Source: an uncultured Pseudomonas sp. (GTDB lineage: Bacteria > Pseudomonadota > Gammaproteobacteria > Pseudomonadales > Pseudomonadaceae). Taken from it: DNA of 64,000 bases. Shown here one piece after another: positions 16,115 through 53,001 of this stretch. Within the stretch, counting starts at the first letter, position 1, and each line of letters begins with the position of its first letter. The stretch covers positions 1 through 64,000 of the forward strand of contig NZ_CAJYDW010000005.1 in NCBI RefSeq assembly GCF_913774235.1, written 5' to 3'. The position numbers and the translations under genes are program-made. Under the pieces are notes generated by a model. That model saw only the letters and a list, made by a program, of their open reading frames with translations. It did no database searches and was not told where the DNA came from.

Positions 16115-16354
16115 TTAGTGCAAGATGAGCCAGGTCATGACGGCGTATAGGAGCAGCCCCCGCAAAGCCGAGCCGCCTGCGGCGTCTGGCTTGAGGTTGC
16201 CGCTGGCCCAGCCCTTGTAGAGGCTGAGCAATAGCCAGGCGAGCCAGAGCGTGATGAGCGCCATGGTTGCTGAGAGCCAGAGCGTGTTGCTGACCGATGG
16301 GGAAACACCGCTTGCTGCCTGGAAGGCGGCGTTTTGCGCCGCGCTCATGCTCAT
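16115..16354 (-). CDS. ICE membrane protein, PFL_4701 type
   Basis: This 79-residue protein has two membrane helices (about residues 24-47 and 63-78) and matches the TIGR03758 small integral membrane family of this ICE type. Its start overlaps the stop of the RAQPRD gene by 4 nt. Like its neighbour it resembles a small pilin-type or channel protein; which of the two is the actual pilin cannot be told from sequence. Confidence 0.83.
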   Translation of the reverse strand: MSMSAAQNAAFQAASGVSPSVSNTLWLSATMALITLWLAWLLLSLYKGWASGNLKPDAAGGSALRGLLLYAVMTWLILH

Positions 16355-16710
16355 GGCTGGGCCCTTTCACGCTGGTACTGGCCAGAAAGCTCGGTCACGT
16401 CGCGCGGTTGGGCCCGGCTGGGCGCCAGGTAGTCCTGCAGGCCCTGGCGGATCCGGGCGATGTCAGCGGCGAGGCGGCTGTAGTCCAGCCGGTAGCGGGC
16501 GCTGCCATCGCTGGGTAGCTCGGCGCTGCGCCGGGCGACCGCCTCGACGGCGTTGAGCTGGCGGATCATGGCGTCGACGTTGGCCTGCTCCGAGGCAGTG
16601 CCGGCGGCCAAGGCTTGATCACCAACGGGTAGGTTCAGCAGCAGAAATAGGACAGCGCTAGCGACTCGGCGCCATGAGACAGGATAGATAAGAAGGACAG
16701 TTGTTTTCAC
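16351..16710 (-). CDS. RAQPRD-family ICE protein
   Basis: This 119-residue exported protein starts with GTG, has a signal peptide (hydrophobic residues 16-35, cleavage near LAA-GT) and carries the exact family motif RAQPRD near its C-terminus (SRAQPRDVTELSGQYQ). The family (TIGR01690) is found only in ICE transfer regions; its role is unknown, presumably periplasmic. It is the first gene of the long operon running down to 7665, and lies 58 nt after copy 2 of the conserved promoter element. Confidence 0.88.
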   Translation of the reverse strand: MKTTVLLIYPVSWRRVASAVLFLLLNLPVGDQALAAGTASEQANVDAMIRQLNAVEAVARRSAELPSDGSARYRLDYSRLAADIARIRQGLQDYLAPSRAQPRDVTELSGQYQRERAQP

Positions 16711-16875: not shown

Positions 16876-18054
16876 CTACAACTCTTCCCTTAAAGCAATA
16901 CCGCCGAGGTTCTGGAGTAGCGGCGCGTTTTCGCATGCTATGTACACACACTCTTCGGAGGCAGAGTTTATGTGTTGGTGCTCTGCCCAGACGGGCACGT
17001 AGAAGGCATCGCCAGCTTCCCAGGGCACAATTTCGCTGCCTATTTTCGAGTGCCCGCTACCCGACATCACATAGATGATGGTCTCGTAGTTGTGCCGGTG
17101 TAGACGAGTGGAGCCACCAGGAACAAGACGCCCGATAGTCATGCTAATCGTTTTGCTCGGGAGATTCACCGTATGTACTGGATGGTTTCTTTTGTTTGAA
17201 AAAATTGCATCGTTTGTAGACGACGAGTTAATGACTTGCTTGTGCGTCAGCTTTTCAGGGATGCGCGCAGTTAGCTGCCCAGGCACCTGCCAGAAGTCAT
17301 TAGATGAATAGCTCTGCTGAGGTGCGAGTGATTCGGCTCCTTCGTGCAGATGGTTTCGCCAGACTGCATCAAAAATAGCAAGCCTTTTCTGGATTAGCTC
17401 AAGTCCAACTTGTTTGGCTTTCTCAACTTTGAATGGAGAATCGTCTACAAGACGATTCATGATGCCAAGCATCACTAGGGCATGGTCTTCATCATCTTCA
17501 ATATGCAATCGGAAGAACTCTGTTGCATCGGGTCCGTAGTTAAGATGCTCCAATGCCGACAAAATTGGCTTATATATCGTTGGCACAATTGCTTCTGCAC
17601 CGAGGCAAAGGGCGGAAAGCCCCACAATTGGATCAGGATCCTGGCACCTCTTTAGCATCGTATTAACCATGTCAAGCGTTGCTTGAAGGGGAGGTGTATC
17701 ACCTGGCGATACACCTACACAGCGTAAAGAGCGCTGAAATAGCTCAGCGTGGGTGACACGGTCTTCTCCATCAACGCCCATCTCTTCAACCATGTTGTCT
17801 ATTAGCGCCACGACGTCGAGCGGGTCTTTTATCTGGCTTATTAGGGCGCATAGGTAGCGGGTGAAATGTTTAGAATAATGGCTATGTTGCGCGAGCAAAG
17901 ACTTGACCAGAGACGGCGAGGCCTCCCCTTTTTCAAGTGCCACCATCAAAGGATGCTCATTGAGCATTTTGATGTTGCTTGCATCCAGCCAGTCGGCCCA
18001 GATTGATGGTTCGTTGTAGTTCGTATCTTCCAGCTTCTGAAGAATTGCGCTCAT
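16876..18054 (-). CDS. HDO-type diiron oxygenase fused to a cupin
   Basis: This 392-residue protein joins two metal-binding domains. Residues about 30-235 resemble haem-oxygenase-like diiron oxidases (HDO, as in CADD, UndA, BesC): candidate ligands are E90/E91 (NMVEEMG), H102 (THAEL), E154 (GAEAIVP) and H184/D188/H191 (the HxxxDxxH motif). Residues about 290-392 form a cupin with H319, H321 and E324 (LHRHNYE) and a second motif GDAFYVPVWAEHQHIN. HDOs cleave or N-oxygenate amine-bearing substrates with O2; cupins often bind Fe as well. The pairing in one chain suggests two consecutive oxidative steps. It is the last gene of the five-gene cluster read from 22035. The substrate is unknown. Confidence 0.75.
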   Translation of the reverse strand: MSAILQKLEDTNYNEPSIWADWLDASNIKMLNEHPLMVALEKGEASPSLVKSLLAQHSHYSKHFTRYLCALISQIKDPLDVVALIDNMVEEMGVDGEDRVTHAELFQRSLRCVGVSPGDTPPLQATLDMVNTMLKRCQDPDPIVGLSALCLGAEAIVPTIYKPILSALEHLNYGPDATEFFRLHIEDDEDHALVMLGIMNRLVDDSPFKVEKAKQVGLELIQKRLAIFDAVWRNHLHEGAESLAPQQSYSSNDFWQVPGQLTARIPEKLTHKQVINSSSTNDAIFSNKRNHPVHTVNLPSKTISMTIGRLVPGGSTRLHRHNYETIIYVMSGSGHSKIGSEIVPWEAGDAFYVPVWAEHQHINSASEECVYIACENAPLLQNLGGIALREEL

Positions 18055-18107
18055 TTTGATGCCTCGCTAAAGCCCCGATAGGGATAATTTGGTTAGAAAG
18101 AGTTACT

Positions 18108-19379
18108 TCAATGTGATGCTTCGAAGGCCGGTTTTTCCTTTTTTTTAAGCGAAAGACCAACGCCGGCCAAGAACCAGAAAATCGAGTAGAGCATCAGGCT
18201 TCCGAACCCTTGCGCTAGAAAAATCCATCCCAGAGCGGCGATTATGGAAATTAGTCGATTTGCGAGCCCTGTTGTTTTTCTGGTGTAGGCTAAAATCGCG
18301 CCACCATAAAGAATGATGAACCCCTGAGTAGTTGCCAAAAAGGCGATTTCTGGGCTTAACGCGAAGTGACCTATGGCCCATATAATGAGGCTGTAGGCTA
18401 ACAGCGCAGTTACCAAGCACGCGGTGGGCGTACCATCTTTTGAAGTGGTCGATAAAAAGGACGGTAAGGTGCCTGCTTTGGCCGCTGAATAAAACGCCCG
18501 GGAAGAGCCAAATACCCAAGAATTGGCGTTGGCCAGCAAAATAATTACCATAAGCCCTAGCATTATTTTGCCGACAACACCGTTTGGTACAATCGAGGCC
18601 AAACCATTCAATCCTTCTACTGAGTAGCCTTCCATAGCCGATGCTGCTATAGCGGCTGCGAATCCTAGATAGCAGACTGAAACCACCAAGAAACTAATCC
18701 AGAATATTTTTGGTATGTTCTTGTCAGGGTCTTTGATCTCGCCGAAACCGAAAGTCAAATTTTCCCAGCCTTGAAAAGCCCAGAAAACTATCCCGGCAGC
18801 TAACCAGATGCTCGAGATATTACCGACTTCAGGTTGCCTCCATCTTTCCACTTCCAGAAGCTGTGGGATGTAAGGCAGGGACCGAGCGCAAACAAATAGA
18901 ATCACTGATACGATTAACAATATGGCGACGGTATTAAACCAGCCTAGTTGCTTGAGCCCAAATATGTTCGCAAGAGTCGTCAAAATGGCTATTGCGATCG
19001 CTAAGGGAATCGACCAAGTAGATGTATCTAGCCCTAGCAACGAAGCGGCATAGCTTCCTCCGACTAGAAAAAATGCTGGCATGCCTATTAGAAGCGTGCC
19101 CGCGGTGAGCATCAAGATTCCATTTTTTGACCAAGTTCCAAAGCCCATGCTGGCGTACAGTGCAACGCCTTCTGACTCTGGGTACTTTCGGCCTAAATAG
19201 GAAAATATATGTATCATGGCGGGCATTATTGCAACCACCACTGCCCAGCCTATTAGGGAGTTAAGCGGGCCCGCAGCCTGTATGGCAAGGCCGGGTAGTC
19301 CGAATAGCCCGGATCCAATAACCATAGAAATGGCTATTGCGACTCCGGATGCTAAAGATATTTGGCGCTTTTCTTTCAT
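18108..19379 (-). CDS. APC-superfamily amino-acid permease
   Basis: This 423-residue permease has about 12 membrane helices and the APC signature in helix 1 (VIGSGLFGLPG). APC permeases import amino acids or related amines, commonly with protons. The start used is the ATG at 19379; a GTG three codons upstream is equally possible. It lies between the oxygenase-cupin and SDR genes with short gaps (53 and 51 nt), so it is probably cotranscribed and supplies, or recovers, the substrate of the cluster. Confidence 0.85.
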   Translation of the reverse strand: MKEKRQISLASGVAIAISMVIGSGLFGLPGLAIQAAGPLNSLIGWAVVVAIMPAMIHIFSYLGRKYPESEGVALYASMGFGTWSKNGILMLTAGTLLIGMPAFFLVGGSYAASLLGLDTSTWSIPLAIAIAILTTLANIFGLKQLGWFNTVAILLIVSVILFVCARSLPYIPQLLEVERWRQPEVGNISSIWLAAGIVFWAFQGWENLTFGFGEIKDPDKNIPKIFWISFLVVSVCYLGFAAAIAASAMEGYSVEGLNGLASIVPNGVVGKIMLGLMVIILLANANSWVFGSSRAFYSAAKAGTLPSFLSTTSKDGTPTACLVTALLAYSLIIWAIGHFALSPEIAFLATTQGFIILYGGAILAYTRKTTGLANRLISIIAALGWIFLAQGFGSLMLYSIFWFLAGVGLSLKKKEKPAFEASH

Positions 19380-19430
19380 ATTGGGCACCCAAAATTAGTG
19401 TTGTGGGCTGTATGTTTAATGGCTGCGCTA

Positions 19431-20177
19431 TTAGCCGGTTCCGGCCGACGCCCCTCCGTCGACAGGCATTACTGCTCCTGTGATAAAAGACGAAGATTCC
19501 GAGGCCAGAAAGACGACTACCTGAGCCACTTCATCGGGTTTCCCGATCCTGCCTAGTGGCCTAGATGCCCCTGCTGCGCGAAACCGATCTATGGACGACC
19601 CAACCAATGACGCCTCTTGCGCTAGCAAGGGAGTGTCGGTATCTCCTGGGCATACGCAATTGATACGAATATTCGCTTTCCCGTAGTCAACTGCCATGGC
19701 CTTTGTAAGCAAAACAACTCCTCCTTTCGAGGCGCAATAGGCGCTGGCCCGGTCCCCGCCGGCGATGCCCCACCCAGATGAAATGTTAATGATCGCGCCA
19801 GCTCCATTTTCAACCATCGACGGAAGTGCTGCTCTACTTGTTAGAAAGCAGGATGTTAAGTTGGCTGCAATCACTTTGTTCCAATCACTGAGAGAGGTGT
19901 CGATAACGGTCGCGCGATGGATGATGCCGCAGCTGTTAACAAGAACGTCTATCTTCTTGTACTCACTGAGGATAGCCTCGAAAGCTGCATTTACACGGCT
20001 CTCATCTGTTAGATCCAGTGTAAGCCGATGCTCAACCGAGAGTTCTTGTTTGCCCCCGAATTTTAAATCTAGAGCTACTACCGTGGCGCCTAGATCTGAA
20101 AACGCTTGAGCACAGGCTTGGCCAATTCCACTACCTCCCCCTGTTACGACAACCACTTTTCCATCAAAAACCTTCAT
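19431..20177 (-). CDS. Short-chain dehydrogenase/reductase
   Basis: This 248-residue SDR shows all classical elements: TGGGSGIG at residues 12-19, Asp37 at the end of strand 2 (favouring NAD over NADP), NSCG at 81-84 where NNAG is usual, Ser133/134, Tyr147 and Lys151 (YCASK), and the closing GGASAGTG. It should oxidise an alcohol or reduce a ketone. Its start overlaps the upstream oxygenase gene by 4 nt, so the two are tightly coupled: an oxygenase making a hydroxyl and an SDR oxidising it is the natural reading. The substrate is not known. Confidence 0.88.
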   Translation of the reverse strand: MKVFDGKVVVVTGGGSGIGQACAQAFSDLGATVVALDLKFGGKQELSVEHRLTLDLTDESRVNAAFEAILSEYKKIDVLVNSCGIIHRATVIDTSLSDWNKVIAANLTSCFLTSRAALPSMVENGAGAIINISSGWGIAGGDRASAYCASKGGVVLLTKAMAVDYGKANIRINCVCPGDTDTPLLAQEASLVGSSIDRFRAAGASRPLGRIGKPDEVAQVVVFLASESSSFITGAVMPVDGGASAGTG

Positions 20178-20917
20178 TGCTTTTCCTTATTTGCCTGGTA
20201 TAGCAGCGTCGCAGTGTCGCCGTATACAACTTCTGGTTTGTCGTGGAAGGCGAAATTTATTACTGTTCTTACGCCTTTCTGCAGTGGTGTGACTCGATGC
20301 AATGTACTGCCTGCCTCCAATATGTATGCATCTCTTGCGTCTAAGAAATCTCTGATGATTAAGTTTTCTTGGTCAGCAAGCTTGACCTGCTCATTCAAAG
20401 GCAGCGATTCGACGGCGAAGGCTTTCTGGAAGGCATTCCAATTCGGAATAAGCTCTATCATGCCTCCTGAACGTGGGGCCCTTATTGCAATTACAAAGGC
20501 GTATCTAGGGTCATCTAGATGCCATCCGTGAGTGTCGCCTTGGGCCGATAGTGTATTCACGACAATACACTCTTCGGGATGGTCAATCTGATAAATTGGG
20601 CGGCCTGCTTGTCGCTCTATAAGATTGGCAATAGTTTGATCTTCGTACATTGCCTGGATCTTTGGACAAGTTCTTCGAATCAGACGGCCGCCTGCCACGC
20701 TTAGGTTACGAGGGGTCTCGTAACCTGGCATGATGAAATCGCGCCTTAAGTGAATTTTCTGAAGCTGCATGATTTCATTTAGAATTGCTTCATGCTCGTC
20801 TTCTGAAAGATATTCTTTTATTTTTAAGTAGCCCGTTTCTCGAAGCAGGTTGGCAGATTCCAAAGAGGTAAGCGCTTCGTACGCGCCGCCGTTTTCCCAT
20901 TTTCCAAATTTTAACAT
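20174..20917 (-). CDS. Fe(II)/2-oxoglutarate-dependent oxygenase
   Basis: This 247-residue protein has the iron triad of 2-oxoglutarate oxygenases: H133 and D135 in THGWHLDDPRYAF, and H207 in GSTLHRVTPLQKGVRTVINF, with R217 as the likely 2-oxoglutarate anchor. The HGWH-x-DD context resembles the ArpA/StrG/HalD-like group, whose members act on amino acids or small amines. Halogenases of that group replace the Asp; here it is kept, so hydroxylation or desaturation is expected rather than chlorination. It lies just upstream of the SDR gene with an ATGA overlap. Confidence 0.82.
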   Translation of the reverse strand: MLKFGKWENGGAYEALTSLESANLLRETGYLKIKEYLSEDEHEAILNEIMQLQKIHLRRDFIMPGYETPRNLSVAGGRLIRRTCPKIQAMYEDQTIANLIERQAGRPIYQIDHPEECIVVNTLSAQGDTHGWHLDDPRYAFVIAIRAPRSGGMIELIPNWNAFQKAFAVESLPLNEQVKLADQENLIIRDFLDARDAYILEAGSTLHRVTPLQKGVRTVINFAFHDKPEVVYGDTATLLYQANKEKQ

Positions 20918-20943
20918 GATCTTCTTCCGTTTTTTCTGGGCGG

Positions 20944-22035
20944 CTAGTTAGACTGTGGCATGGTCGGAGGGGTACCTTCCAATTCGTCTTGGGCGTGGTG
21001 TTTGAACCACCGCTTGTTACCTACGAGGTATGCAATTACATGCCCCATATATTGGACGGTGAACCACATAGGTAAGAAGGCCGCAGCATAAGGCAGATCA
21101 TGGGTCTTGAAGATAACCAATGCCGCCCAGACGATAATTCCAAGAGCGGAGGCCAACGCAACGGTTGTTGATAGGTTCGTCTGCATCTGCTGCCAGGGTT
21201 TCAGGCCGCCCGGAAGAGGGCCTGCCCCAATTATGAAGCCCACCAACATGGATCCTACTAATCCCGCGGCGGCGGCGGTCGCTAGAGATCCTCCACTGGA
21301 ATTTGGTACGCCTATTATGACCCAGTAAAAAACGCCCAGAATGATACCGCCTACAACCCCTCTTACATGGATATGAGGTGTCTTCCAATGTTGAGGGGCG
21401 GCGGTCTCAATGTCTTTTGCGCCTTCTAGTCTTTTAAAGTTGGGGAGGATGTTTCCTGTAACTTTTTGATAGTTTGAATACTGAACTCCTGCCAGCTTTT
21501 CCAGTCTTTTGTCATATAGAATGGTCCCAATGACATTGTAGATATTCAGCACGATCGCAAGGGTCAATAGATCCGCGGTCATCGTTGGTATAAGAAAAAA
21601 CATTGGAAAAAATGCGGTATGAACAGGGAACCTTATCCAGCGTCTAGAGCCGATTTTCCAGAGCGGGTTCTTTAGACTGCTTTTTCCGGCCATGGCGGAG
21701 ACGAAGCTTGTAGAGCCGAAGGCCAATCCACAGTCGTACTCGAACAAGTGGAGCTGCCAATACCAGACCCACGAGGCTGCTACCAAGGCGGCTGCTACGT
21801 AGTAGCTAACTCCTTCCAGTGACCAAATAATTTGGTCCACCGGCTGCCAAAGCCAAGCGGCTATAAAGATGTAGGATATGTTTGTGAGGCTTTCAATCGA
21901 GCGCCAGGCAAGCGAGTCTATTTTGACCAATTTGTTTGCAATTGCTTTGACCTTGAGAGTGGCCAAAACAGAATGCTGCATGCCAAATCCCGTTACCAAA
22001 AGCGTGTCAAATAATAATTTTAGCCAGTCCGTCAT
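20944..22035 (-). CDS. MddA/NnrU-like integral membrane protein with extra C-terminal helices
   Basis: This 363-residue protein has about nine membrane helices. Residues 1-210 resemble the isoprenylcysteine-methyltransferase-like family that includes MddA (methanethiol S-methyltransferase) and NnrU: note FGMQHSVLAT near residue 17, and MTADLLTLAIVLNIYNVIGTILYDKRLEKLAG...YSNYQK near 150-190. The usual RHPxY methyl-donor motif reads RFPVH here, so methyltransferase activity is doubtful. Residues about 225-345 add four helices I do not recognise. It is the first gene of the cluster, and a long perfect inverted repeat lies 157 nt upstream. Confidence 0.65.
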   Translation of the reverse strand: MTDWLKLLFDTLLVTGFGMQHSVLATLKVKAIANKLVKIDSLAWRSIESLTNISYIFIAAWLWQPVDQIIWSLEGVSYYVAAALVAASWVWYWQLHLFEYDCGLAFGSTSFVSAMAGKSSLKNPLWKIGSRRWIRFPVHTAFFPMFFLIPTMTADLLTLAIVLNIYNVIGTILYDKRLEKLAGVQYSNYQKVTGNILPNFKRLEGAKDIETAAPQHWKTPHIHVRGVVGGIILGVFYWVIIGVPNSSGGSLATAAAAGLVGSMLVGFIIGAGPLPGGLKPWQQMQTNLSTTVALASALGIIVWAALVIFKTHDLPYAAAFLPMWFTVQYMGHVIAYLVGNKRWFKHHAQDELEGTPPTMPQSN

Positions 22036-22214: not shown

Positions 22215-23036
22215 AATTAATGGCTAATGATATCAATGTAATGTTTTTAACTGTGCGTGCGGTGCAAAAATGCTTTTCGCTGCGGGGTTGAACTTCCTGT
22301 TCGTTGAGGCGGCAGGCGTAAGACTCACCCCTGATTTGGCAAGGCTTCCAAGGGGGGGCTACGAACAACTCATTCCTTTTACTTAATGCCTTTGACTCAT
22401 CAAGCCCCTAGGGCTGCCTAGCTGTCGAAAGTCACTTTGGCTTCTGTTGGACCAAAGTTATTGGTTCGGACGAACGGTCTTGTCTTTAGCGTGATAATAA
22501 TTAGTGGGGGTCTTATTAAGGGGTGACAAGACCGCTACAGAACAGCAATCAGAATCAGACCCAGCTCGCGCAGGCACCGACGATGGATGTTCGTGGCGCA
22601 CAGAAGCCGATCACGGCAAGGCGCGCCTAATAGCCATAGCTGGCTGTCCTTGGGCAGTCGTCTAGTTTCGGTTAGTAGTCGATGCCTTTTGTCATGGGCT
22701 TAAGCGAACCCTTTCGTTAGCTAATGCAGCTGTAGGGGCGGTGTTCAGCAAGGCGTCGGACGCTCTAGGAATTCATTGTCGATGTGGCTGCTCTAGCCTT
22801 CTCCTGTGGGTAAACAAAGGAGAGGTTGGCTAGATGCCTATCGGCCTTACCTAGATAGCTGTCCGGCCTACCAAAGCGTTCACAGTCGAGGCATTTACTT
22901 AGCCTGAAGCGCTTTAGGCGCTTGAATAATGGCTTCGATCGTAATCGGTTCGAGGCGCTCCGATGAAATTTGCAATATCCCTGCTATCATCGGCTTGAGC
23001 AGGTTTTTTCTGAATTGTTACGATTGGGAGGCGGAA
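22215..23036. other. Intergenic region with inverted repeats
   Basis: I find no gene in about 820 nt; all frames are broken by stops. It holds a perfect 10-bp inverted repeat with a 40-nt loop (CGGTCTTGTC at 22475, GACAAGACCG at 22525), a long imperfect hairpin (22792-22834, arms TCTAGCC and GGCTAGA with inner TCTCCT/AGGAGA) and a short hairpin (22907-22923) just before the OsmC gene. It may contain promoters for both sides, a small RNA, or decayed mobile DNA. Confidence 0.4.
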
Positions 23037-23519
23037 GTGACCGATAAAATTCACAAGTATTCTGTCAAGGTGACTTGGACTGGTAATAACGGAGCAGGTA
23101 CTTCCTCTTACGAAAGCTACAGCCGTTCACATGTGATTCAGGCTGAGGGTAAACAGCGGATAGAAGGATCTTCCGACCCCAGCTTTCGAGGTGACCCGGC
23201 ATGCTGGAACCCAGAGGAATTGCTTTTGGCATCTTTAGCGGCATGCCATAAACTTTGGTACCTCAATCTTTGTGCCAAAGCCGGTTTAGTTGTAGTTTCC
23301 TATGTGGACAACGCGGAAGGAACTATGACTGAGGTCTCTGGAGGAGGAGGCCAGTTCACAAGCGCTATTTTGAGGCCAACAGTGGTGTTGGCGTACGGGG
23401 CTGACGTCGAAAGAGCCAGAGATTTGCATGGGGTCGCTTCTAAAAAGTGTTTTATTGCACGCTCTGTTAATTTTCCAGTCGCACATTTTCCTGAAATAAT
23501 CGTAAAAAACGAGCCATAG
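23037..23519 (+). CDS. OsmC/Ohr-family peroxidase
   Basis: This 160-residue protein matches the OsmC family of thiol peroxidases that reduce organic hydroperoxides. The two catalytic cysteines are C70 (LAACHKLW) and C138 (ASKKCFIARS), with the typical NPEELLLASLAAC helix. I place the start at the GTG at 23037, because GGGAGG lies 5 nt upstream and the length then fits the family; upstream ATGs add 36 unrelated residues. It is divergent from the oxygenase cluster and might protect against peroxides or by-products made by it. Confidence 0.82.
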   Translation: MTDKIHKYSVKVTWTGNNGAGTSSYESYSRSHVIQAEGKQRIEGSSDPSFRGDPACWNPEELLLASLAACHKLWYLNLCAKAGLVVVSYVDNAEGTMTEVSGGGGQFTSAILRPTVVLAYGADVERARDLHGVASKKCFIARSVNFPVAHFPEIIVKNEP

Positions 23520-23575
23520 GAGCCCTGTTTTGACGTGGCGCTGGGAGTCCGCCTCGACGGCACTCAGTTGGCTGA

Positions 23576-23680
23576 TCAAGACGTTGAAATCGGTAGCGCT
23601 GGACCAGGCTCGCCGGGAGCAAGCACGACGGCAAGACCGAAATGACCGAATGGCTTACGAGGGTAGGAGGACAGTTTCAC
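23576..23680 (-). pseudogene. Fragment of a second RAQPRD-type leader gene
   Basis: A 34-codon frame starts with GTG 47 nt after promoter copy 3, like the intact RAQPRD gene, which starts 58 nt after copy 2. Both begin with the bases AGCTGTGAAA and share CTGTCCT soon after. The predicted peptide (MKLSSYPRKPFGHFGLAVVL...) looks like an interrupted signal peptide and ends at a stop near the edge of the cargo. It seems to be the original first gene of the operon, cut off when the 16.8-23.5 kb block came in. Confidence 0.4.
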
Positions 23681-41779: not shown

Positions 41780-41969
41780 TGATTAGCTCCGCCTTCTGAG
41801 TGAACCAAGCTTCAACTTCATTCACGCACTTTCGTAAGCAGCAATCGGTGTAGGGCTTGCAGAAGAATCGGTCAATAGCTCCAGTTTGGAATTGTTCCGC
41901 ACTAGCGTGATCATCATGTCCATATGCTCGGAAGTTAATGTGGTCTAGGCATTCTGCTAGCACGCCCAT
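41780..41969 (-). pseudogene. Possible response-regulator receiver remnant
   Basis: The reverse strand reads INFRAYGHDDHASAEQFQT, then GAIDRFFCKPYTDCCLRKCV. This follows the pattern of the last third of a receiver domain: a Gly-His-Asp loop, then an inter-helix stretch, then the conserved Lys-Pro (FxxKP) of strand 5. No upstream part with the phosphoacceptor Asp is found, and the frame continues into unrelated sequence. It looks like a decayed fragment left between two cargo genes. Confidence 0.3.
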
Positions 41970-41982
41970 CTATGGTGAAAAT

Positions 41983-44900
41983 ATGGACTACAAACGCATT
42001 AGAAGTACGGGCTTAGGACAACGCCTCGCATTTGAAGAACTCATCTGTCAGCTAGCAAGGCGAGAACAGCCGTCCGTCGACGCAGAATTTAGAAGAATAG
42101 AAGGAGCTGGGGGCGATGGTGGAATTGAGGCGTACTGGCTGCTCAGCGATGGTGGTGAGATTGGTTATCAAGCTAAATACTATACAAAATCAGCTGATAT
42201 AAATTGGTCTAATATTGACGATTCCGTGCGGCGGGCTTTGGAAACGCATCCAGGACTGTCCAAGTATATTGTCGCTCTCCCTTGTGATCTGACTGATAAA
42301 ACTGGCAAGCAAAATGGCGGAAATACGGGTTGGGAGAATTGGCAGGCTCGAAAGAAAAAATGGGCTTCGCTTGTTGCACCGCATAAAAATGTAGATTTTA
42401 TTGCATGGACGGCTTCAGAGATCACAGATCGACTTGCTCATCCGAATGCTGAAGGCCTACGTCGATATTGGTTCGGCGACGTTGAGTTCTCACCGAAATG
42501 GTTTTCTGATCACATAGAACTCGCAGTCAAATCGTTAGACGAAAGATACCATCCCGAAGACCATGTCGAAGTTAGCATTGAGCGAGTATTTAAAGTATTA
42601 CTGCGCGACGAAAGTATCATTGGTGAGATTCAGAGCCACTTTTCAAAGATTCAGAACGCTGTGCAACTCGCCGGCATTGAACAGTCGTTGGAGGGCTGCT
42701 TAGCGCTTATTGAAGCTATCCAAACCCATTCAGCAGTCTTGGATAAACTTAGCTTGGACTTCACTTCAGACGCATGGAGAACTTGGCCTATAGCCGCAGT
42801 CCTGGAGGTGACTGAGTCAATTTCAACCTGCGTTCATGATATCGAAAGGGTTCTTTGGCAAGCTAAACAGGAAAAAGCAAAGCAATCGAAATCGGGCAAC
42901 TCCTCATTGGACGACGTAGAGCGTCGTTTACGCGAACTAAGTGATGCATCGTACGTATTCAAGTCGCTGCTTAAGGGACGATACTTTTCTGCGGAGTCAG
43001 GCCGCAGTGTTTTTATATCTGGGAAAGCGGGAGCGGGAAAATCGCATCTACTAGGTAGCGTAGCGCAGAGCGCCATATCAGAGCGTAGAGTCGTCGTCCT
43101 AATCCTCGGCCAACAGCTAAATGGCGACAGTGTCTGGGCTCAGATCTCCAAGCGCCTAGGCATCGGAGAAGTTAATCCTGACGTATTACTTCAAGCACTG
43201 AGTGCCGCCGCTGACGTTACCGGCAAGCGCGGGTTGATCCTAGTGGATGCGGTAAATGAAGGGGCCGGATTAGCCCTCTGGCGTAATGAGCTGGCAGAAT
43301 TCGTCGCAAGAGTCGAACGCCACCCGAATCTAATTCTGGCCTTCAGTTGTAGGGCTGAATATATTCCTTACATTATCCCCTTTTCGGTAAGTGAGAAAGT
43401 TTCGGAATTCCGAGTTCGCGGATTTGAAACGCAGGAAGAGCAGTCGAGAGCGGCTCGCATTTATTTGGGAAAGCGCGGTATATCTCAACCGAACACCCCG
43501 TGGTTGGCCGCCGAGTTTGTAAATCCACTTTTTTTGCGTAGTGCTTGCGTTGCTCTTGAAAGAGAAAATCAAAAGTGGTTTCCCAAGGGTTTGATAGGCA
43601 CGAAGCGGGTTTTCTCGTTCTATACCAGGAGTATCGCTCGCAACCTAGGCGCTGGTAGGGATGGTAGCGATGATTTGGTAACGCCAACGAACCAAGCACT
43701 TGCTGCGATTGCTTCGGACATGGCAGCAAATAGACGTGACTATGTGCCGCATAGCGACGCTATACGCATAGTTGACAGGAGTTTCCACGCATACCCAGCC
43801 CCCCAAGGGAAAACGTGGTTTGAAATTCTTCAGAAAAACGGCCTATTCCGGCTTGACCCAGATCCTAGGAAAAGGGGAGCCGATCCTTTTTCCGCTCCTG
43901 AAGAAATAGCTCGCTTCAGCTTTCAGAGGCTTCAAGACCACTTGATGGCCTCAGTGATACTGGAGACAGTAACCAATCCTTCTGATGCACTGAAATCTGG
44001 CACCCTAAAATTTATCCATGATGATGATAGCATTCATGGGGACTGGGTAGGATTGGTCGACGCTCTGTCGGTGCAACTGCCTGAGCGTTTCAATCAAGAG
44101 CTGCTCGATCTGCTACCCGGCAATATCAATACATGGGTGAATGATCCAGCAGTCAGCGATGGCTTCATAGATAGCCTTAGGTGGCGCGATAATGAGTCGT
44201 TTACCGATCGGACACTTCAGATATTCAACGCATTCCTGAAAGTTGAAGACGGATATTTCGATATTATCATCCAGGTCGGTGCGAGTGCTGGGCACCCCTG
44301 GAATGCAGAGGCGCTGCATAAGCGGCTAATTGCTCTTGATATGCCGAAGCGGGATGCATATTGGACTGTGCACGCGAACATTCTCCCGTTAGACGAGGGT
44401 GCTACCGCCAGACGGCTCATAGAATGGAGCGCTCTTGAACAGAGCGAGCAGACAGATCCTGAGGTACAGTACCTTTGCGCGATAACTCTTACATGGTTCC
44501 TTGCTAGTTCTAACCGAGAGTTACGGGATAAGGCTACCAAAGCGCTCACCTCGCTGATGATCCGTAACCCCTCTCTGTACGCGAAGCTTTGCGGCGATTT
44601 TGCCGAAGTAGACGATTTGTATATCTTAGAGCGCCTGCACATGGCAGCCTTCGGCGCGTGCTGTGTCAGCAATTGTGAACGGCTTCTACGTCCCTTTTCT
44701 GAGGTGGCCTACAAGGCTGTATTCGACCGGGTGGACGTCCCTGCATCCATCCTGCTCCGAGACGCCGCCCTTGGCATTATCGAACTCGCCGCTTGCAAAA
44801 ATTGCTTGCTAGAAAGCGTGGACATTCAGAAGGCCCGGCCGCCCTATGACTCGAAGGTCATTCGACTTTTCGTCACAGAAGAGGCGGTCGAGAAGGCTGC

Positions 44901-46464
44901 CAAGCGTGCCGGCGACTCTCAGATACTGAACTCGTGCGCTCAATGGGGTGGCGATTTTGGCAGCTATGAAATACGGCCTCGTGTGACTTCGTTCTTGAAT
45001 ATATCGCTGAGCACGCCGGAACCCCTGAGCCCTTCCGAAAGATATGAAATTTTTGAGCAAGAAGTCATCGACCATTGCCCTGAGCGCGTCGAGCTCCTTG
45101 AGATGATGCATGCCTTTACGCCCAATCGCTTCCGAGACATTCTTCAGGCCCGGCGGGATACGGCCCCATCTGATCACTCCCAAAGCTTTAAAACATGCGA
45201 GACGCTTCTTCTAGGAATGCTGAGCACTGGTGAAAGGGCTAGGTATCGAAAGGAATATAGGCCGCGATTCAGCTCCCCCGAGGAGCAGCCCGACCAGCTA
45301 TCGCATATCGATGTGGCAGCAGCCCAGCGCTGGGTCGCTAAGCGTGCCTATAGCCTGGGCTGGACTAAGGATTTGTTCCCCGATGATTGGAGTAGGCGTC
45401 ATGATTACAGTCGGGACAGACCGCTGGTTGAGCGTATTGGTAAGAAATACCAATGGCTAGCTTTGGATGAGCTTCTGTGCAGCCTTGCTGATAACAAGTG
45501 GATGTCCGAGCGTGCCCTCCACGGATCGCGTCAGTATCGTGGTCCTCTAGATGTGGGTTTTCATCGAGACATAGATCCAACAATCCTTATGACGTCCGAC
45601 GAGGCGCTGAGCCTAGAGGATTCAATTCCAAGATTCGAAATCATTATGCGAAAGACGGAAGAACAAGAGCTAGGTAAGTGGCCTTTCGAAGAGGATCCGG
45701 CCTTGGGTATGGCGCACTTTGTCAGCAGGACGGATGCGAAGGGTAGGGCCTGGATAGTCCTACATGAGCACCAGTCAAAATCGGAGCGTTACAAAGATAA
45801 GTCTAGTCGCGAGCATGGCCTAAGAAAGCAAGAGTGGCGCTTTTTATTGCCAATAATCGTTAAGCGTGAGGATGAGCGGAGACTTATAAAATACATCTCT
45901 ATGGAAAAAGAAGTTCGGGTTGATAACTGGTCAACCCGAGACGCAACGGACGATGGCTATCTTCTCGAAGCCCCTTGGCGTTCGACCTGGGATCAAGAGC
46001 AGTGGTCAACCATGGACTTTCGTAATATTGGGGAGGTTGAAATTGCCTACCCGTGTTTCCGTTACCAGTGGGAGTCTCATCTAGATGCGTCATTGAGCGA
46101 CGGCGCTCACGCTCTAATACCTGCGCCATGGCTTGCAAAACGGTTGGGGCTGACGCCGCATCACTCAAAGTCAAATATATACGCTGATAGCTCAGGTAAG
46201 GTGCTTTTCGTCAGTGGTAAAAGTCCTGGCGGCGGCTCTCATGCTTTTATAGATCGAGGTCTGTTCGACTCTTTTCTACAGGAGGACGATCTGGTCTGTG
46301 TATGGGTTTTTGTTACAGAGCGGGGCGCTTGGCCGGGTGGTGGAAATAGCCATGTCTCTTGGCGTCGATCTGAAGGAGTCATTTGGTTTAGCGAGCGTGA
46401 ACCACAGCTGCAACATTGGAAAGAAGATGTGGACAAAGGAGAACCATCTGACTCGGTTTGTTAG
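41983..46464 (+). CDS. Avs-like antiphage protein: PD-(D/E)XK nuclease plus STAND NTPase
   Basis: This 1493-residue protein starts with a Cap4/Mrr-like nuclease: AEFRRIEGAGGDGGIEAYW (D45, E49) and IGYQAKYY (Q63-x-K65). A STAND-type NTPase follows, with Walker A GKAGAGKS at residues 347-354 and Walker B RGLILVDAVNEG (D422, E426). The remaining 950 residues are helical and repeat-like, as in sensors of AVAST (Avs) proteins, which recognise phage terminase or portal and then cut DNA. I cannot tell which Avs type it is. The start at 41983 fits a GGTGA site. Its lower GC content points to acquisition. Confidence 0.75.
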   Translation: MDYKRIRSTGLGQRLAFEELICQLARREQPSVDAEFRRIEGAGGDGGIEAYWLLSDGGEIGYQAKYYTKSADINWSNIDDSVRRALETHPGLSKYIVALPCDLTDKTGKQNGGNTGWENWQARKKKWASLVAPHKNVDFIAWTASEITDRLAHPNAEGLRRYWFGDVEFSPKWFSDHIELAVKSLDERYHPEDHVEVSIERVFKVLLRDESIIGEIQSHFSKIQNAVQLAGIEQSLEGCLALIEAIQTHSAVLDKLSLDFTSDAWRTWPIAAVLEVTESISTCVHDIERVLWQAKQEKAKQSKSGNSSLDDVERRLRELSDASYVFKSLLKGRYFSAESGRSVFISGKAGAGKSHLLGSVAQSAISERRVVVLILGQQLNGDSVWAQISKRLGIGEVNPDVLLQALSAAADVTGKRGLILVDAVNEGAGLALWRNELAEFVARVERHPNLILAFSCRAEYIPYIIPFSVSEKVSEFRVRGFETQEEQSRAARIYLGKRGISQPNTPWLAAEFVNPLFLRSACVALERENQKWFPKGLIGTKRVFSFYTRSIARNLGAGRDGSDDLVTPTNQALAAIASDMAANRRDYVPHSDAIRIVDRSFHAYPAPQGKTWFEILQKNGLFRLDPDPRKRGADPFSAPEEIARFSFQRLQDHLMASVILETVTNPSDALKSGTLKFIHDDDSIHGDWVGLVDALSVQLPERFNQELLDLLPGNINTWVNDPAVSDGFIDSLRWRDNESFTDRTLQIFNAFLKVEDGYFDIIIQVGASAGHPWNAEALHKRLIALDMPKRDAYWTVHANILPLDEGATARRLIEWSALEQSEQTDPEVQYLCAITLTWFLASSNRELRDKATKALTSLMIRNPSLYAKLCGDFAEVDDLYILERLHMAAFGACCVSNCERLLRPFSEVAYKAVFDRVDVPASILLRDAALGIIELAACKNCLLESVDIQKARPPYDSKVIRLFVTEEAVEKAAKRAGDSQILNSCAQWGGDFGSYEIRPRVTSFLNISLSTPEPLSPSERYEIFEQEVIDHCPERVELLEMMHAFTPNRFRDILQARRDTAPSDHSQSFKTCETLLLGMLSTGERARYRKEYRPRFSSPEEQPDQLSHIDVAAAQRWVAKRAYSLGWTKDLFPDDWSRRHDYSRDRPLVERIGKKYQWLALDELLCSLADNKWMSERALHGSRQYRGPLDVGFHRDIDPTILMTSDEALSLEDSIPRFEIIMRKTEEQELGKWPFEEDPALGMAHFVSRTDAKGRAWIVLHEHQSKSERYKDKSSREHGLRKQEWRFLLPIIVKREDERRLIKYISMEKEVRVDNWSTRDATDDGYLLEAPWRSTWDQEQWSTMDFRNIGEVEIAYPCFRYQWESHLDASLSDGAHALIPAPWLAKRLGLTPHHSKSNIYADSSGKVLFVSGKSPGGGSHAFIDRGLFDSFLQEDDLVCVWVFVTERGAWPGGGNSHVSWRRSEGVIWFSEREPQLQHWKEDVDKGEPSDSVC

Positions 46465-50033: not shown

Positions 50034-52448
50034 ATGAGCGATTGCGGATCAAAGGGATGCGGTTGCAGCTCGGCCGCATCAGGCCCTCTCCTTACGCCCG
50101 AATCGACGGCCAGCGCCTTGGCCGAGGCTAAGGAAGCTCACTACCTCATCCAGAACATGGACTGCCCCACAGAGGAAGCGCTCATTCGGCGCAGGCTGGG
50201 CGGCATGTCTGACGTGGTCGGCTTAGAATTCAACCTGATGCAGCGCACGCTGATCGTGCGGCACAACCTGCCGTCGTTGTCCCCGATAGAAGAAGCCCTG
50301 TCGGCGGTCGGTATGCGGGCGGTGCTTCAGGGAGACGAACCAAGCACGCAGATTACCCGTCTTGGCATCGCCCAGATGGATTGCCCTACCGAAGAGACCC
50401 TGATTCGAAACAAGCTCGCCCTTCTGCCTGGTGTAGTCGATCTGGACTTCAATCTAATACAGCGCACATTGACTGTGCGTCATACCGCCAGCGCACGAGT
50501 CAAGATACTCGATGCGATCCAGTCGTTAGGCTTCGAGGCCCTAGAGCTGGATACCCAGGATTATCGCACTCCACCATCCAGGGCCTATAGCGACTCGACG
50601 CCGTGGCTGCAGCTCGGCTTCTCTCTTGCTGCTGCAATAGCCGCAGAGGGCGTGTACTGGTATCTAGGTGGCAATCACTGGTCGGTCCTGGTGTTGGCGT
50701 TGATTGCCATCTCCATGGGCGGCTTGTCCACCTACAAGAAGGGCTGGATAGCGCTTAAAAACCGCAACCTCAACATGAACGCCCTGATGTCGATTGCCGT
50801 CACCGGGGCCATGTTGATCGGCCATTGGCCGGAGGCGGCGATGGTGATGGTGTTGTTCGCCCTCGCCGAGGTCATTGAGGCTAAGTCGCTGGATCGTGCC
50901 CGCAATGCCATCCGGGATCTACTCGACCTAGCCCCTGAGCAAGCCACGGTGCAGCAGCCTGACGGTAGTTGGCTCGCTGTGGAGGCCAAGCAGGTCGCAA
51001 TCGGTAGCCGGGTGCGAGTGCGGCCGGGCGAGCGCATCGCCCTCGATGGCGTGCTGCTAGAGGGCGGGTCCACTGTGAGCCAAGCGCCGATCACCGGGGA
51101 AAGCCTTCCCGTTGAAAAGGTCCCTGGCGACCCGGTCTATGCCGGCACCATCAACGAATCGGGGTCCTTCGAATACCACGTCACGGCGGTGGCCGGTAAC
51201 TCCACCTTGGCACGCATCATCCAAATGGTGGAAGAAGCGCAAGGGAGCCGCGCTCCAACCCAGCGCTTCGTCGATCAATTCGCCCGCTGGTACACGCCTG
51301 CCGTTTTCGTGCTGGCCATTGCCGTGGCGGTACTGCCGCCCCTGCTTCTGGGCGCAGCTTGGATGGAGTGGATCTATCGGGCCCTGATTCTGCTGGTGGT
51401 GGCCTGCCCCTGCGCCTTGGTCATTTCCACCCCGGTCACCATTGTCAGCGGGCTGGCTGCCGCAGCACGTCAAGGCATCCTCATCAAGGGTGGGGTGTAC
51501 TTGGAGGATGGTCGCAAGCTGCGATGGCTAGCCTTGGACAAGACCGGCACGCTCACCCACGGCAAACCCGAGCAGACCGATGCCATCTCCCTGAACAGCG
51601 CCTTGACCGACAGCAGTCGCAGCATTGCAGCGAGTCTCGCCAGCCGCTCTGATCATCCGGTATCCAAAGCCATCGCGAAAGCCGCCATCGGCGACGGTGT
51701 GGTGCTGCGAGAGGTCGGGGAATTTGCCGCGCTGCCTGGCCAGGGCGTACGCGGTGTGATCAATGGAGAGATCTATCATCTTGGCAACCATCGAATGGTC
51801 GACGGATTGGGGGGAGGCTCCGCGGACCTGAAACAACGTATCACCGCGCTCGAACGCGAGGGCAAGACCGTAGTGATGCTGGTAGGGGCTGACGATATAC
51901 TGGCGATCTTTGCTGTCGCCGACACCATCAAGGACAGCAGTCGCAGTGCGATAGCCGAGCTGCATGCGCTGGGTATCCAGACCGTGATCCTGACGGGCGA
52001 TAATCCACATACCGCCCAAGCAATTGCTGTTCAGGCCGGCATAGATCGCGCCCAAGGTAACCTGCTACCGGCCGACAAGGTGCGCGAAGTCGAACAGCTT
52101 GCCCAGTCCAGTAAGGTCGGCATGGTAGGAGACGGTATCAACGATGCCCCGGCATTGGCACGCGCCAATATTGGCTTTGCAATGGGGGCTGCGGGCACCG
52201 ACACGGCCATCGAGACAGCAGACATAGCACTCATGGACGATGACCTGCGCAAGATCCCGACCTTCGTCAGGCTGTCTCACGCCACCGCTCACGTGCTCTT
52301 GCAAAATATCGTGCTCGCGCTTGGCCTGAAGGCTGCATTCCTGGTGCTCACCTTCACGGGGCAAGCAACCATGTGGATGGCCGTATTCGCCGATATGGGA
52401 GCCAGCCTGCTGGTGGTCGGCAACGGCTTGAGGCTACTGCGCCGATAA
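50034..52448 (+). CDS. cadA: Cd/Zn/Pb-exporting P1B-type ATPase CadA
   Basis: This 804-residue ATPase pumps Cd, Zn and Pb out of the cytoplasm. It has a Cys-rich start (CGSKGCGCSS), two N-terminal metal-binding domains with MDCPTEE motifs (near residues 43 and 115), the CPC site in the membrane (C458, C460), the phosphorylation site DKTGTLTHGK (D502), and the hinge GDGINDAPALARANIGFAMG. It is transcribed from the CadR-controlled promoter. Confidence 0.95.
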   Translation: MSDCGSKGCGCSSAASGPLLTPESTASALAEAKEAHYLIQNMDCPTEEALIRRRLGGMSDVVGLEFNLMQRTLIVRHNLPSLSPIEEALSAVGMRAVLQGDEPSTQITRLGIAQMDCPTEETLIRNKLALLPGVVDLDFNLIQRTLTVRHTASARVKILDAIQSLGFEALELDTQDYRTPPSRAYSDSTPWLQLGFSLAAAIAAEGVYWYLGGNHWSVLVLALIAISMGGLSTYKKGWIALKNRNLNMNALMSIAVTGAMLIGHWPEAAMVMVLFALAEVIEAKSLDRARNAIRDLLDLAPEQATVQQPDGSWLAVEAKQVAIGSRVRVRPGERIALDGVLLEGGSTVSQAPITGESLPVEKVPGDPVYAGTINESGSFEYHVTAVAGNSTLARIIQMVEEAQGSRAPTQRFVDQFARWYTPAVFVLAIAVAVLPPLLLGAAWMEWIYRALILLVVACPCALVISTPVTIVSGLAAAARQGILIKGGVYLEDGRKLRWLALDKTGTLTHGKPEQTDAISLNSALTDSSRSIAASLASRSDHPVSKAIAKAAIGDGVVLREVGEFAALPGQGVRGVINGEIYHLGNHRMVDGLGGGSADLKQRITALEREGKTVVMLVGADDILAIFAVADTIKDSSRSAIAELHALGIQTVILTGDNPHTAQAIAVQAGIDRAQGNLLPADKVREVEQLAQSSKVGMVGDGINDAPALARANIGFAMGAAGTDTAIETADIALMDDDLRKIPTFVRLSHATAHVLLQNIVLALGLKAAFLVLTFTGQATMWMAVFADMGASLLVVGNGLRLLRR

Positions 52449-52584
52449 GTAGGACAATCGCCCCGTAGCAGGCTCATAGCCGCCCAACGTACTTACCTGG
52501 TCAGTTAGTCGACCACGGGGTAGTCCGCACGATCTTCACCTCTAGTCGGCTATGACCTGCAGGAGATCTTCACAACACAAAAAT

Positions 52585-52612
52585 ATATTCGTATATTCAA
52601 ATATACGAATAT
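52585..52612. promoter_or_regulatory. ArsR operator
   Basis: ATATTCGTATATT and AATATACGAATAT form perfect 13-bp arms separated by 2 bp, within 20 nt of the arsR start. This is a typical imperfect-to-perfect dyad for an ArsR/SmtB dimer, and overlaps the region where a -10 would lie. Confidence 0.82.
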
Positions 52613-52631
52613 TCGAATGACTAGGCCTCAC

Positions 52632-52982
52632 ATGGACCTCCAGCCGCATACGTTTTTCAAGTGCCTCGCCGACGAGACACGAGTCCGGATCATGCTCATG
52701 CTCGCCGCTGAGGGCGAGCTATGCGTTTGCGAATTGATTTGGGCGCTCGACGATAGTCAGCCGAAGGTCTCTCGCCACCTGGCTCAACTCCGCGTCTGCG
52801 GTTTGCTGGAGGATCGCCGGCAAGGTCAGTGGATCTACTACCGCCTTCATCCGAAGCTGCCTCAATGGGCAATGGATGTGCTCCAGGCAACGCTCGAGGC
52901 GAATCGCTCTTGGCTTGGCGAAGACCAGGGCCGCCTTGCTTCGATGGAAGGTCGCCCGGTACGCCAGGCCTCCTGTTGCTAA
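52632..52982 (+). CDS. arsR: ArsR, arsenic-responsive repressor
   Basis: This 116-residue winged-helix repressor has the metal-binding ELCVCEL motif near residue 35 and the recognition helix DSQPKVSRHLAQLR. It should release the operator when As(III) or Sb(III) binds the two cysteines. I chose the ATG at 52632 because TAGG lies 7 nt before it; the ATG at 52617 has no ribosome site. It is the first gene of the ars operon. Confidence 0.92.
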   Translation: MDLQPHTFFKCLADETRVRIMLMLAAEGELCVCELIWALDDSQPKVSRHLAQLRVCGLLEDRRQGQWIYYRLHPKLPQWAMDVLQATLEANRSWLGEDQGRLASMEGRPVRQASCC

Positions 52983-53001
52983 GTGATTTCGGAGACTTGA
53001 C

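What the first reader, a model, noticed from the sequence alone, without database searches (positions are those of the whole stretch)
16876..22035. Cargo operon of five genes forms an uncharacterised oxidative pathway
Read from 22035 to 16876: MddA/NnrU-like membrane protein, Fe(II)/2OG oxygenase, SDR, amino-acid permease, HDO-cupin protein. Short gaps and two 4-nt overlaps suggest one transcript. Iron ligands of both oxygenase types are intact. The set recalls amino-acid-modifying systems such as BesC/BesD (HDO plus 2OG enzyme) but the gene order, the cupin fusion and the membrane partner are not those of a pathway I know. A plausible route is permease import, hydroxylation, oxidation by the SDR and oxygenative cleavage; this order is inference.
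Basis: partly seen in the sequence, partly recalled or inferred. Interest (0 to 1): 0.78.

Follow-up and report, generated by a model that had tools for sequence, protein, structure and literature searches.

The report
Mobile amino-acid-oxidising operon with export gene
A mobile DNA element carries a five-gene operon that most likely makes and exports an unusual oxidised amino acid; related gene sets occur in a few distant bacteria, including plasmids of plant pathogens, and what they make is not known.

Summary
The five genes and coordinates are right. They are low-GC cargo in a conjugative element, bordered by its RAQPRD gene and a degenerate part-copy of it. One detail is wrong: there is one 4-nt overlap, not two. 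By alignment both oxygenases keep their iron ligands; the 2OG enzyme has HxD (hydroxylase-type, not halogenase).

All four add a CoF-synthetase-like gene, not found here; three add a DUF3050 HDO; G919 has the same permease (50% identity). B. glumae adds an ATP-grasp gene (weakly L-amino-acid-ligase-like) and MFS transporters. This, and the permease's nearest curated family (exporter YjeH), favours biosynthesis and export over import and breakdown.

Here the HDO is of another subfamily (45% to a Pantoea HDO-EctB fusion) and is fused to a gentisate-dioxygenase-like cupin; among characterised HDOs a review names only SznF with a cupin, and no similarity to SznF was found. The membrane protein has lost MddA-like motifs.

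Substrate, product, reaction order and transport direction are inferred. Verdict: new variant of a known kind.

The parts
20944..22035 (-). MEM: membrane protein; first ~200 aa MddA-like, extra hydrophobic C-terminal ~150 aa absent from the 3 relatives aligned
   Evidence: (MddA 62.8 bits, cut-off 270), 27, 63, 83: the 4 module members compared have RFPxH in place of RHPxY/M and lack the EE motif seen in 3 MddA-like proteins
20174..20917 (-). 2OG: Fe(II)/2-oxoglutarate amino-acid hydroxylase of the HalD/BesD family, H133-L-D135 (hydroxylase-type)
   Evidence: HalD 136.2 bits (cut-off 26); clade of 9 HxLDD proteins apart from 7 others (6 HxGD, 1 HWDD), support 100/99
19431..20177 (-). SDR: short-chain dehydrogenase, 46-50% to the SDRs of the four related loci
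   Evidence: 4-nt overlap with the 2OG gene
18108..19388 (-). PERM: APC-family amino-acid transporter, nearest curated family YjeH (exporter)
   Evidence: PRK11021 117.1 bits (cut-off 284); 50% over 411 aa to the permease of the G919 locus; the two own-genome paralogues found score 27 and 25 bits
16876..18054 (-). HDO-cupin fusion: CADD-like HDO domain (about residues 29-235) plus 3-His gentisate-dioxygenase-like cupin (about 290-385; H319, H321, H359)
   Evidence: HDO 45% to a Pantoea HDO-EctB fusion
22929..23519 (+). divergent OsmC-like gene, same low GC, probably part of the same cargo; no evidence that it belongs to the pathway
23538..23623 (-). degenerate second copy of part of the element's RAQPRD gene, at the far edge of the cargo
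   Evidence: 50-nt repeat, 78%; local alignment score 32; maximum of 500 shuffles 23
16351..16710 (-). RAQPRD-family conjugative element gene, near edge of the cargo
   Evidence: TIGR01690 1.2e-25

Best explanation
A compact mobile operon for making and exporting a non-canonical amino acid (an antimetabolite-like product). Proposed course: (1) the HalD/BesD-family 2OG enzyme hydroxylates a free alpha-amino acid, perhaps one with a basic side chain; (2) the SDR oxidises the new hydroxyl to a ketone; (3) the di-metal HDO domain carries out an O2-dependent oxidation (C-C cleavage, desaturation or N-oxygenation are the precedents); (4) the fused mononuclear cupin domain acts on the HDO product; (5) the YjeH-like permease exports the product. 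The membrane protein is MddA-like with an altered active site and either finishes the product or protects the cell. Shown here: the gene set, metal ligands of both oxygenases by alignment, the hydroxylase-type HxD motif, recurrence of homologous 2OG+SDR+MEM in four other loci, the permease in one of them, an HDO (other subfamily) in three of them, and the set's place as low-GC cargo in a conjugative element. Inferred: direction of transport, substrate, reaction order, role of the cupin and of MEM. In the relatives the module is joined to an AMP-ligase-like gene and, in B. glumae, to an ATP-grasp gene; the window's version lacks these, so a free amino acid is the likelier product.
For: Co-conservation: B. 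glumae BGR1 plasmid bglu_3p, order HDO(DUF3050)-2OG-SDR-CoF synthetase-like-MEM-MFS-hypothetical-ATP-grasp-MFS; Robbsia andropogonis plasmid p1, HDO(DUF3050)-2OG-SDR-CoF-MEM-MFS-hypothetical; Ca. Endobugula sertula contig, 2OG-MEM-HDO-SDR-CoF; unnamed G919, 2OG-SDR-CoF-PERM-MEM up to near the contig end. All four module SDRs score the window SDR first among the 8 own-genome SDR loci compared (207-219 bits against at most 164); those 8 are the ones best matching the window SDR, of 48 matches in the genome. Permease 50% identical to that of G919, own-genome paralogues 27 and 25 bits. In B. glumae, ATP-grasp_4 64.9 bits (above cut-off) and LAL_C2 22.3 bits (below its 29.4), with weak matches to BacD and dapdiamide synthase. 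BesD chain residues R77, E123, H137 and D143 (R74, E120, H134, D140 in the numbering I recall) align with window R70, E116, H130, D136; PMC13244439 (passages) states a salt bridge of R77 with the substrate and calls H137 substrate-binding; the roles of the other two are recalled. YjeH exports amino acids (PMC8140960, passages). HDO-cupin proteins in small operons, some with efflux transporters, were predicted in 2010 to modify single amino acids (PMC2922099, section 8).
Against: No substrate or product is known for any member. The window lacks the CoF-synthetase-like gene present in all four relatives, and none was found in its genome (that empty answer had no positive control). Its HDO is only 21-23% identical to the DUF3050 HDOs of B. 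glumae and Robbsia, so that slot is filled by a different subfamily. PERM scores below the YjeH cut-off, and its weaker matches include importers and antiporters. The ligase assignment in B. glumae is weak, and the ligase is not in the window. Within the HxLDD clade the grouping of the five module proteins is weak (72/32), and four other loci of that clade lie in a different gene set. Of 69 plasmid records with a 2OG match only two were opened. Both structure predictions were of very low confidence (mean pLDDT 36.4 and 37.7).
Confidence: 0.62

Rival explanations
1. Catabolic operon: the permease imports an unusual amino acid, which is hydroxylated, oxidised by the SDR and cleaved by the HDO and/or cupin (gentisate-dioxygenase-like) to feed central metabolism.
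For: PERM's weaker family matches include importers; the cupin resembles ring-cleaving gentisate and 5-aminosalicylate dioxygenases; three standalone cupins 49-51% identical to the window's cupin part sit beside dihydrodipicolinate-synthase-family genes; no ligase in the operon.
Against: The B. glumae relative carries an ATP-grasp gene and two MFS transporters, Robbsia one MFS; best curated permease family is an exporter; the HDO review describes the family as acting in natural product biosynthesis (PMC13108848, abstract and section 4). None of the five genes is a regulator.
Confidence: 0.17
2. N-N or N-O chemistry like SznF: the HDO domain N-oxygenates an amino-acid side chain and the cupin rearranges it, giving a nitroso- or diazeniumdiolate-type amino acid; 2OG and SDR prepare the side chain.
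For: Same domain order, HDO then C-terminal 3-His cupin; [quoted passage not shown]
Against: No SznF chain among solved chains by phmmer (25 sequences, E up to 0.1) or by HDO profile (22 sequences, E up to 1); the cupin is nearest gentisate dioxygenases; the SznF-type proteins of PMC2922099 have an extra inactive N-terminal domain for which the 392-aa window protein has no room (inference); none of the five genes is a known N-methyltransferase.
Confidence: 0.12
3. Chance neighbours: cargo genes collected in a conjugative element without a common pathway.
For: The window holds other unrelated cargo-like genes (Avs2-like, arsenic and metal genes); the exact five-gene set was seen only here.
Against: 2OG+SDR+MEM recur together in four other loci, the permease in one; operon-like spacing with a 4-nt overlap; similar GC3 of 0.45-0.55 against 0.76-0.87 for five element genes.
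Confidence: 0.05

Closest known systems
bes pathway (BesD/BesC, beta-ethynylserine)
   Same: HalD/BesD-family 2OG enzyme together with an HDO; an ATP-grasp gene in the B. glumae relative
   Different: HxD hydroxylase motif instead of HxG; BesD and BesC equivalog cut-offs not reached (66.8 of 450; 21.7 of 500); SDR, MddA-like protein, permease and cupin fusion are extra; bes composition recalled
SznF-type HDO-cupin proteins (streptozotocin, chalkophomycin; predicted operons of PMC2922099)
   Same: HDO domain followed by a 3-His cupin in a small operon with a transporter
   Different: no SznF chain hit; HDO nearest CADD and the Pantoea HDO-EctB; cupin nearest gentisate dioxygenase; partners are 2OG and SDR, not the methylase, PLP enzyme or ligases of PMC2922099
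Mangotoxin mboABCDEF (HDO MboA plus ATP-grasp ligases; PMC13185094, abstract and sections 5 and 7 seen)
   Same: HDO near an ATP-grasp gene, as in the B. glumae relative of this operon
   Different: no HalD-type hydroxylase named in the parts seen; the window has no ligase
mgo operon (DUF3050 protein MgoB; PMC3298696, passages)
   Same: DUF3050 family, as in the Burkholderia, Robbsia and Endobugula relatives
   Different: works with an AurF-like N-oxygenase and an NRPS, which are not among these genes
YjeH amino-acid exporter
   Same: PERM's best curated family
   Different: below the equivalog cut-off; substrate unknown
MddA methanethiol S-methyltransferase
   Same: MEM's only curated match, over its first ~200 aa
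   Different: RHP and EE motifs replaced; extra C-terminal hydrophobic part in the window protein

Membership tests
HalD/BesD-family 2OG enzymes | Pfam HalD above gathering score | tested here: met
   136.2 bits, cut-off 26
HalD/BesD-family halogenases | halogenase motif HxG (open halide site) | tested here: not met
   HLD at 133-135; the 9 proteins of its clade have HLDD, the 6 hits of genus g14 have HWGD, one further hit (L022) HWDD
BesD (L-lysine 4-chlorinase) | NCBIfam equivalog cut-off | tested here: not met
   66.8 bits, cut-off 450
BesC | NCBIfam equivalog cut-off | tested here: not met
   21.7 bits, cut-off 500
HDO superfamily | 3-His/3-carboxylate ligand set | tested here: met
   E91, H102, E154, H184, D188, H191 by alignment to CADD (CADD ligands recalled), identical in Pantoea; no structure
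CADD/PabS self-sacrificing pABA synthase | TIGR04305 cut-off and the sacrificed tyrosine (Tyr27, recalled) | tested here: not met
   42.6 bits, cut-off 200; M37 at the tyrosine position
SznF | HDO domain followed by C-terminal 3-His cupin | tested here: met
   H319, H321, H359 from the cupin motifs
SznF | sequence homology to SznF beyond the shared folds | tested here: not met
   no SznF chain (25 sequences, E up to 0.1) or (22 sequences, E up to 1); not compared directly with the SznF sequence
SznF | seventh HDO ligand (3H/4C) | tested here: inconclusive
   cannot be placed without a structure; model of very low confidence
MddA methyltransferase | equivalog cut-off; RHP and EE motifs (role in SAM binding recalled) | tested here: not met
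   62.8 bits, cut-off 270; RFPxH and no EE in window, B. glumae, Robbsia and Endobugula, against RHPxY (2) or RHPxM (1) and EE in 3 MddA-like proteins
YjeH exporter | equivalog cut-off | tested here: not met
   117.1 bits, cut-off 284, but best of 23 families
YjeH exporter | export direction | not testable with these tools
   needs a transport assay
2OG/SDR/MEM module (defined here) | HxLDD 2OG, SDR and MEM homologue in one gene cluster | tested here: met
   window plus 4 loci; the G919 MEM has an in-frame stop
2OG/SDR/MEM module (defined here) | CoF-synthetase-like gene (in the 4 other loci) | tested here: not met
   none in the operon and none found in the genome (no positive control)

The most novel reading that the evidence does not exclude
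A previously undescribed amino-acid tailoring pathway (HxD-type BesD relative, SDR, altered MddA-like membrane protein) that bacteria exchange on plasmids and conjugative elements. In the window lineage it has recruited a second, independently assembled kind of HDO-cupin enzyme, with no detected sequence kinship to SznF, that carries out two coupled metal-dependent oxidations on a hydroxy- or keto-amino acid before export.
Probability: 0.45. Interest if true: 0.72.

Novelty: new variant of a known kind. Interest (0 to 1): 0.58.

Why it matters
The set links a hydroxylase of the BesD clan to HDO enzymes, a superfamily of more than 10,000 members with approximately a dozen validated (PMC13108848, section 4). 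It comes as small clusters that could be rebuilt in vitro. The window version has no ligase, so its product may be a single amino acid, easy to detect. It also offers an HDO-cupin fusion with no detected kinship to SznF, and a membrane family with a changed MddA-type active site whose role is open.

Tried and rejected
Halogenase reading of the 2OG enzyme: rejected by the HxD motif. pABA synthase reading of the HDO: rejected by the score and by the missing tyrosine. Methanethiol methyltransferase reading of MEM: not filed, since score and motifs fail.

HDO-cupin relatives: genome-contig scan with the HDO-cupin, 28 pattern matches and no relative; viral-contig scans with the 2OG alignment (24 pattern matches) and with HDO-cupin (6), no relative; plasmids, 37 records match part of it and 0 of 37 cover 80% (six opened); HDO profile in 274 class genomes, 1 match at 1e-30, the own genome; HDO-cupin in 13 same-genus genomes, own genome in full and two weak cupin matches. 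2OG alignment in genome contigs: 67 pattern matches, 2 relatives (L012, L013). 2OG profile: 7 of 298 family genomes at 1e-20 (the own one and 6 weaker, halogenase-type), 3 of 398 phylum genomes at 1e-20 (own, G643, G469), 2 of 369 class genomes at 1e-40 (own, G919), 3 of 187 in the family of G643 at 1e-40 (G643 included), 1 of 55 relatives of G919 at 1e-30 (G919 itself). 2OG in plasmids: 69 records, among them 34 Pantoea; the listed Pantoea rows are 22-24% identical; two of the 69 (B. glumae, Robbsia) were opened. MEM in plasmids: 30 records (27 Burkholderia). MEM profile in 390 order genomes: 9 with matches at 1e-20, the own genome and 8 at about 78-91 bits, taken as ordinary MddA-like proteins; their neighbourhoods were not opened. 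MEM against solved structures: nothing by phmmer at E up to 5, chance hits at E 0.6 or more by profile.

Structure predictions of HDO-cupin (single sequence) and MEM (two sequences): mean pLDDT 36.4 and 37.7, not used, and no fold search made. MddA motif comparison: of 9 loci only 3 gave a usable stop-free frame (L049, L054, L056); L050 was mis-picked and 5 gave none. The first 2OG tree had a mis-framed row and was replaced; the SDR tree was poorly resolved (module 69/93) and is not used. Two papers searched for BesD substrate residues gave none under the labels tried; one search gave only references and a figure legend.

Paper searches (10; one search was about YjeH, about DUF3050) showed no description of this gene set.


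Full report
What is there. Five minus-strand ORFs occupy exactly 22035-16876. Read in the direction of transcription they are a membrane protein (MEM), a Fe(II)/2-oxoglutarate enzyme (2OG), a short-chain dehydrogenase (SDR), an APC-family permease (PERM) and a protein with an HDO domain followed by a cupin. Four of the five genes have a purine-rich site before an ATG; the permease starts at a GTG without one. The consensus scan found no minus-strand promoter-like site, so a single transcript rests on spacing alone.

Where it sits. On both sides in the window lie genes of an integrating conjugative element (TIGR03751, TIGR03752, TIGR03749, TIGR03746, TIGR03750, TIGR03745 and RAQPRD; the traC ATPase and TraD). 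The five genes have GC 0.46-0.52 and GC3 0.45-0.55, against 0.64-0.66 and 0.76-0.87 for five element genes. At the far side of the cargo, 23538-23623 is a degenerate copy of part of the RAQPRD gene that borders the near side (local alignment score 32 against a maximum of 23 in 500 shuffles). The segment between the two copies also holds a divergent OsmC-like gene (22929-23519). The simplest reading is that the cargo came in at the RAQPRD gene; no empty site was looked for. Of 13 genomes of the genus, the own genome included, only the own one has the HDO-cupin in full length.

The 2OG enzyme. It scores 136 bits against Pfam HalD (cut-off 26). Its triad is H133-L-D135 ... H207, with Asp where the halogenases have Gly. 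Residues aligned with BesD R77, E123, H137 and D143 (chain numbers; R74, E120, H134 and D140 as I recall them) are R70, E116, H130 and D136, and the 2OG-binding Arg is R217. PMC13244439 (passages only) states the salt bridge of R77 with the substrate and calls H137 a substrate-binding residue; what the other two do is recalled. A tree puts nine HxLDD proteins, the window's included, apart from seven others (six HxGD, one HWDD) with 100/99 support; grouping inside the nine is weak (72/32 for the five module members).

The module. The 2OG, SDR and MEM genes recur together in four other loci. B. glumae BGR1 plasmid bglu_3p: HDO(DUF3050)-2OG-SDR-CoF synthetase-like-MEM-MFS-hypothetical (weak GNAT hit)-ATP-grasp-MFS (27 Burkholderia plasmid records match the 2OG query and 27 the MEM query, of which this one was opened). 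Robbsia andropogonis plasmid: HDO(DUF3050)-2OG-SDR-CoF-MEM-MFS-hypothetical. Ca. Endobugula sertula contig: 2OG-MEM-HDO-SDR-CoF (DUF3050). Unnamed G919, of the window's class: 2OG-SDR-CoF-PERM-MEM, close to the contig end, the MEM frame broken by a stop. Identities to the window proteins: 2OG 35-39%, SDR 46-50%, MEM 24-28%, PERM 50% (one locus). Each of the four module SDRs ranks the window SDR first among eight own-genome SDR loci (207-219 bits; next best at most 164); the eight were those scoring best against the window SDR, of 48 matches in the genome. PERM's two own-genome paralogues score 27 and 25 bits. Four further loci of the 2OG clade (Paraburkholderia solisilvae, G643, G1201, G1203) lie in a different set: GNAT-like, NMNAT-like and FAD-protein-like genes, named by eye and shared by the four loci. 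So the 2OG clade alone does not define the module.

What differs in the window. No CoF-synthetase-like gene is in the operon, and a search of the own genome with the B. glumae protein found none (no positive control). The HDO is 45% identical over 239 aa to the HDO half of an HDO-EctB fusion on a Pantoea agglomerans plasmid but only 21-23% to the DUF3050 HDOs of B. glumae and Robbsia. The six ligand positions map to E91, H102, E154, H184, D188 and H191 (the CADD ligands are recalled) and are identical in Pantoea. By the alignment the three DUF3050 proteins keep a like set, with one residue more before the last His in Robbsia and Endobugula. The cupin is nearest gentisate dioxygenases among solved structures and 49-51% identical, over its length, to three standalone cupins beside dihydrodipicolinate-synthase-family genes. 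No other full-length HDO-cupin of this kind was found. The review by Skirboll et al. (PMC13108848; [quoted passage not shown] no SznF chain was hit. HDO-cupin proteins in small operons, some with efflux transporters, were predicted in 2010 (PMC2922099, section 8 and passages), so the architecture as such is not new.

MEM. Its only curated match is MddA (62.8 bits, cut-off 270); the B. glumae and Endobugula proteins score alike (60.8 and 61.0). In the four module proteins compared the motif reads RFPxH and the EE motif is gone, while three MddA-like proteins keep RHP (RHPxY in two, RHPxM in one) and EE (3 of 9 loci usable). I take this as an altered active site; that the motifs bind SAM is recalled. 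The window protein has about 150 further residues, largely hydrophobic, that the three relatives aligned lack.

Mechanism. The B. glumae locus holds an ATP-grasp protein (ATP-grasp_4 64.9 bits; LAL_C2 only 22.3 bits, below its cut-off), weakly like BacD and dapdiamide synthase, and two MFS transporters; Robbsia has one MFS; PERM is nearest YjeH, an exporter. Hence biosynthesis and export is favoured over import and breakdown. The proposed order hydroxylation, ketone formation, HDO oxidation, cupin step, export is inference.

Limits. Genomes searched were samples (1,988 genome searches counted over 12 calls, repeats included), collections were scanned with few peptide patterns, most plasmid hits were not opened, both structure models were of very low confidence, and papers outside the open library were not seen. 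That this gene set is not in print means only that searches did not show it.

Noticed in passing
window 16528-16577 and 23538-23587: The cargo is bounded by the RAQPRD gene and a degenerate copy of part of it, suggesting that cargo enters this element at that gene.
   Followed up: partly
window 41938-46464 (+): 1508-aa protein matching Avs2 (735 bits, below the 1000 cut-off), a candidate anti-phage protein.
   Followed up: no
L002 8220-10220 (+): Pantoea agglomerans plasmid: one 666-aa ORF joins an HDO domain to a diaminobutyrate transaminase (EctB); PLSDB lists only the EctB part. ThiF, TauD, ATP-grasp and PurD-like genes follow: probably an uncharacterised peptide cluster.
   Followed up: partly
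   Followed up: partly
L003 8004-9364, L004 7965-9378, L005 7986-9368: Standalone cupins 49-51% identical to the window's cupin domain sit directly before a dihydrodipicolinate-synthase-family gene in Gluconobacter, Hymenobacter and Chroococcidiopsis plasmids: a possible clue to the cupin's substrate.
   Followed up: no
L030 14328-14774 (+): The MddA-like gene of G919 is interrupted by an in-frame stop, by tblastn with the Endobugula protein.
   Followed up: no
window 22929-23519 (+): OsmC-like gene divergent from the operon, inside the same low-GC cargo.
   Followed up: no
window 50034-54291 (+): Heavy-metal P-type ATPase and ArsB genes, further cargo of or beside the element.
   Followed up: no
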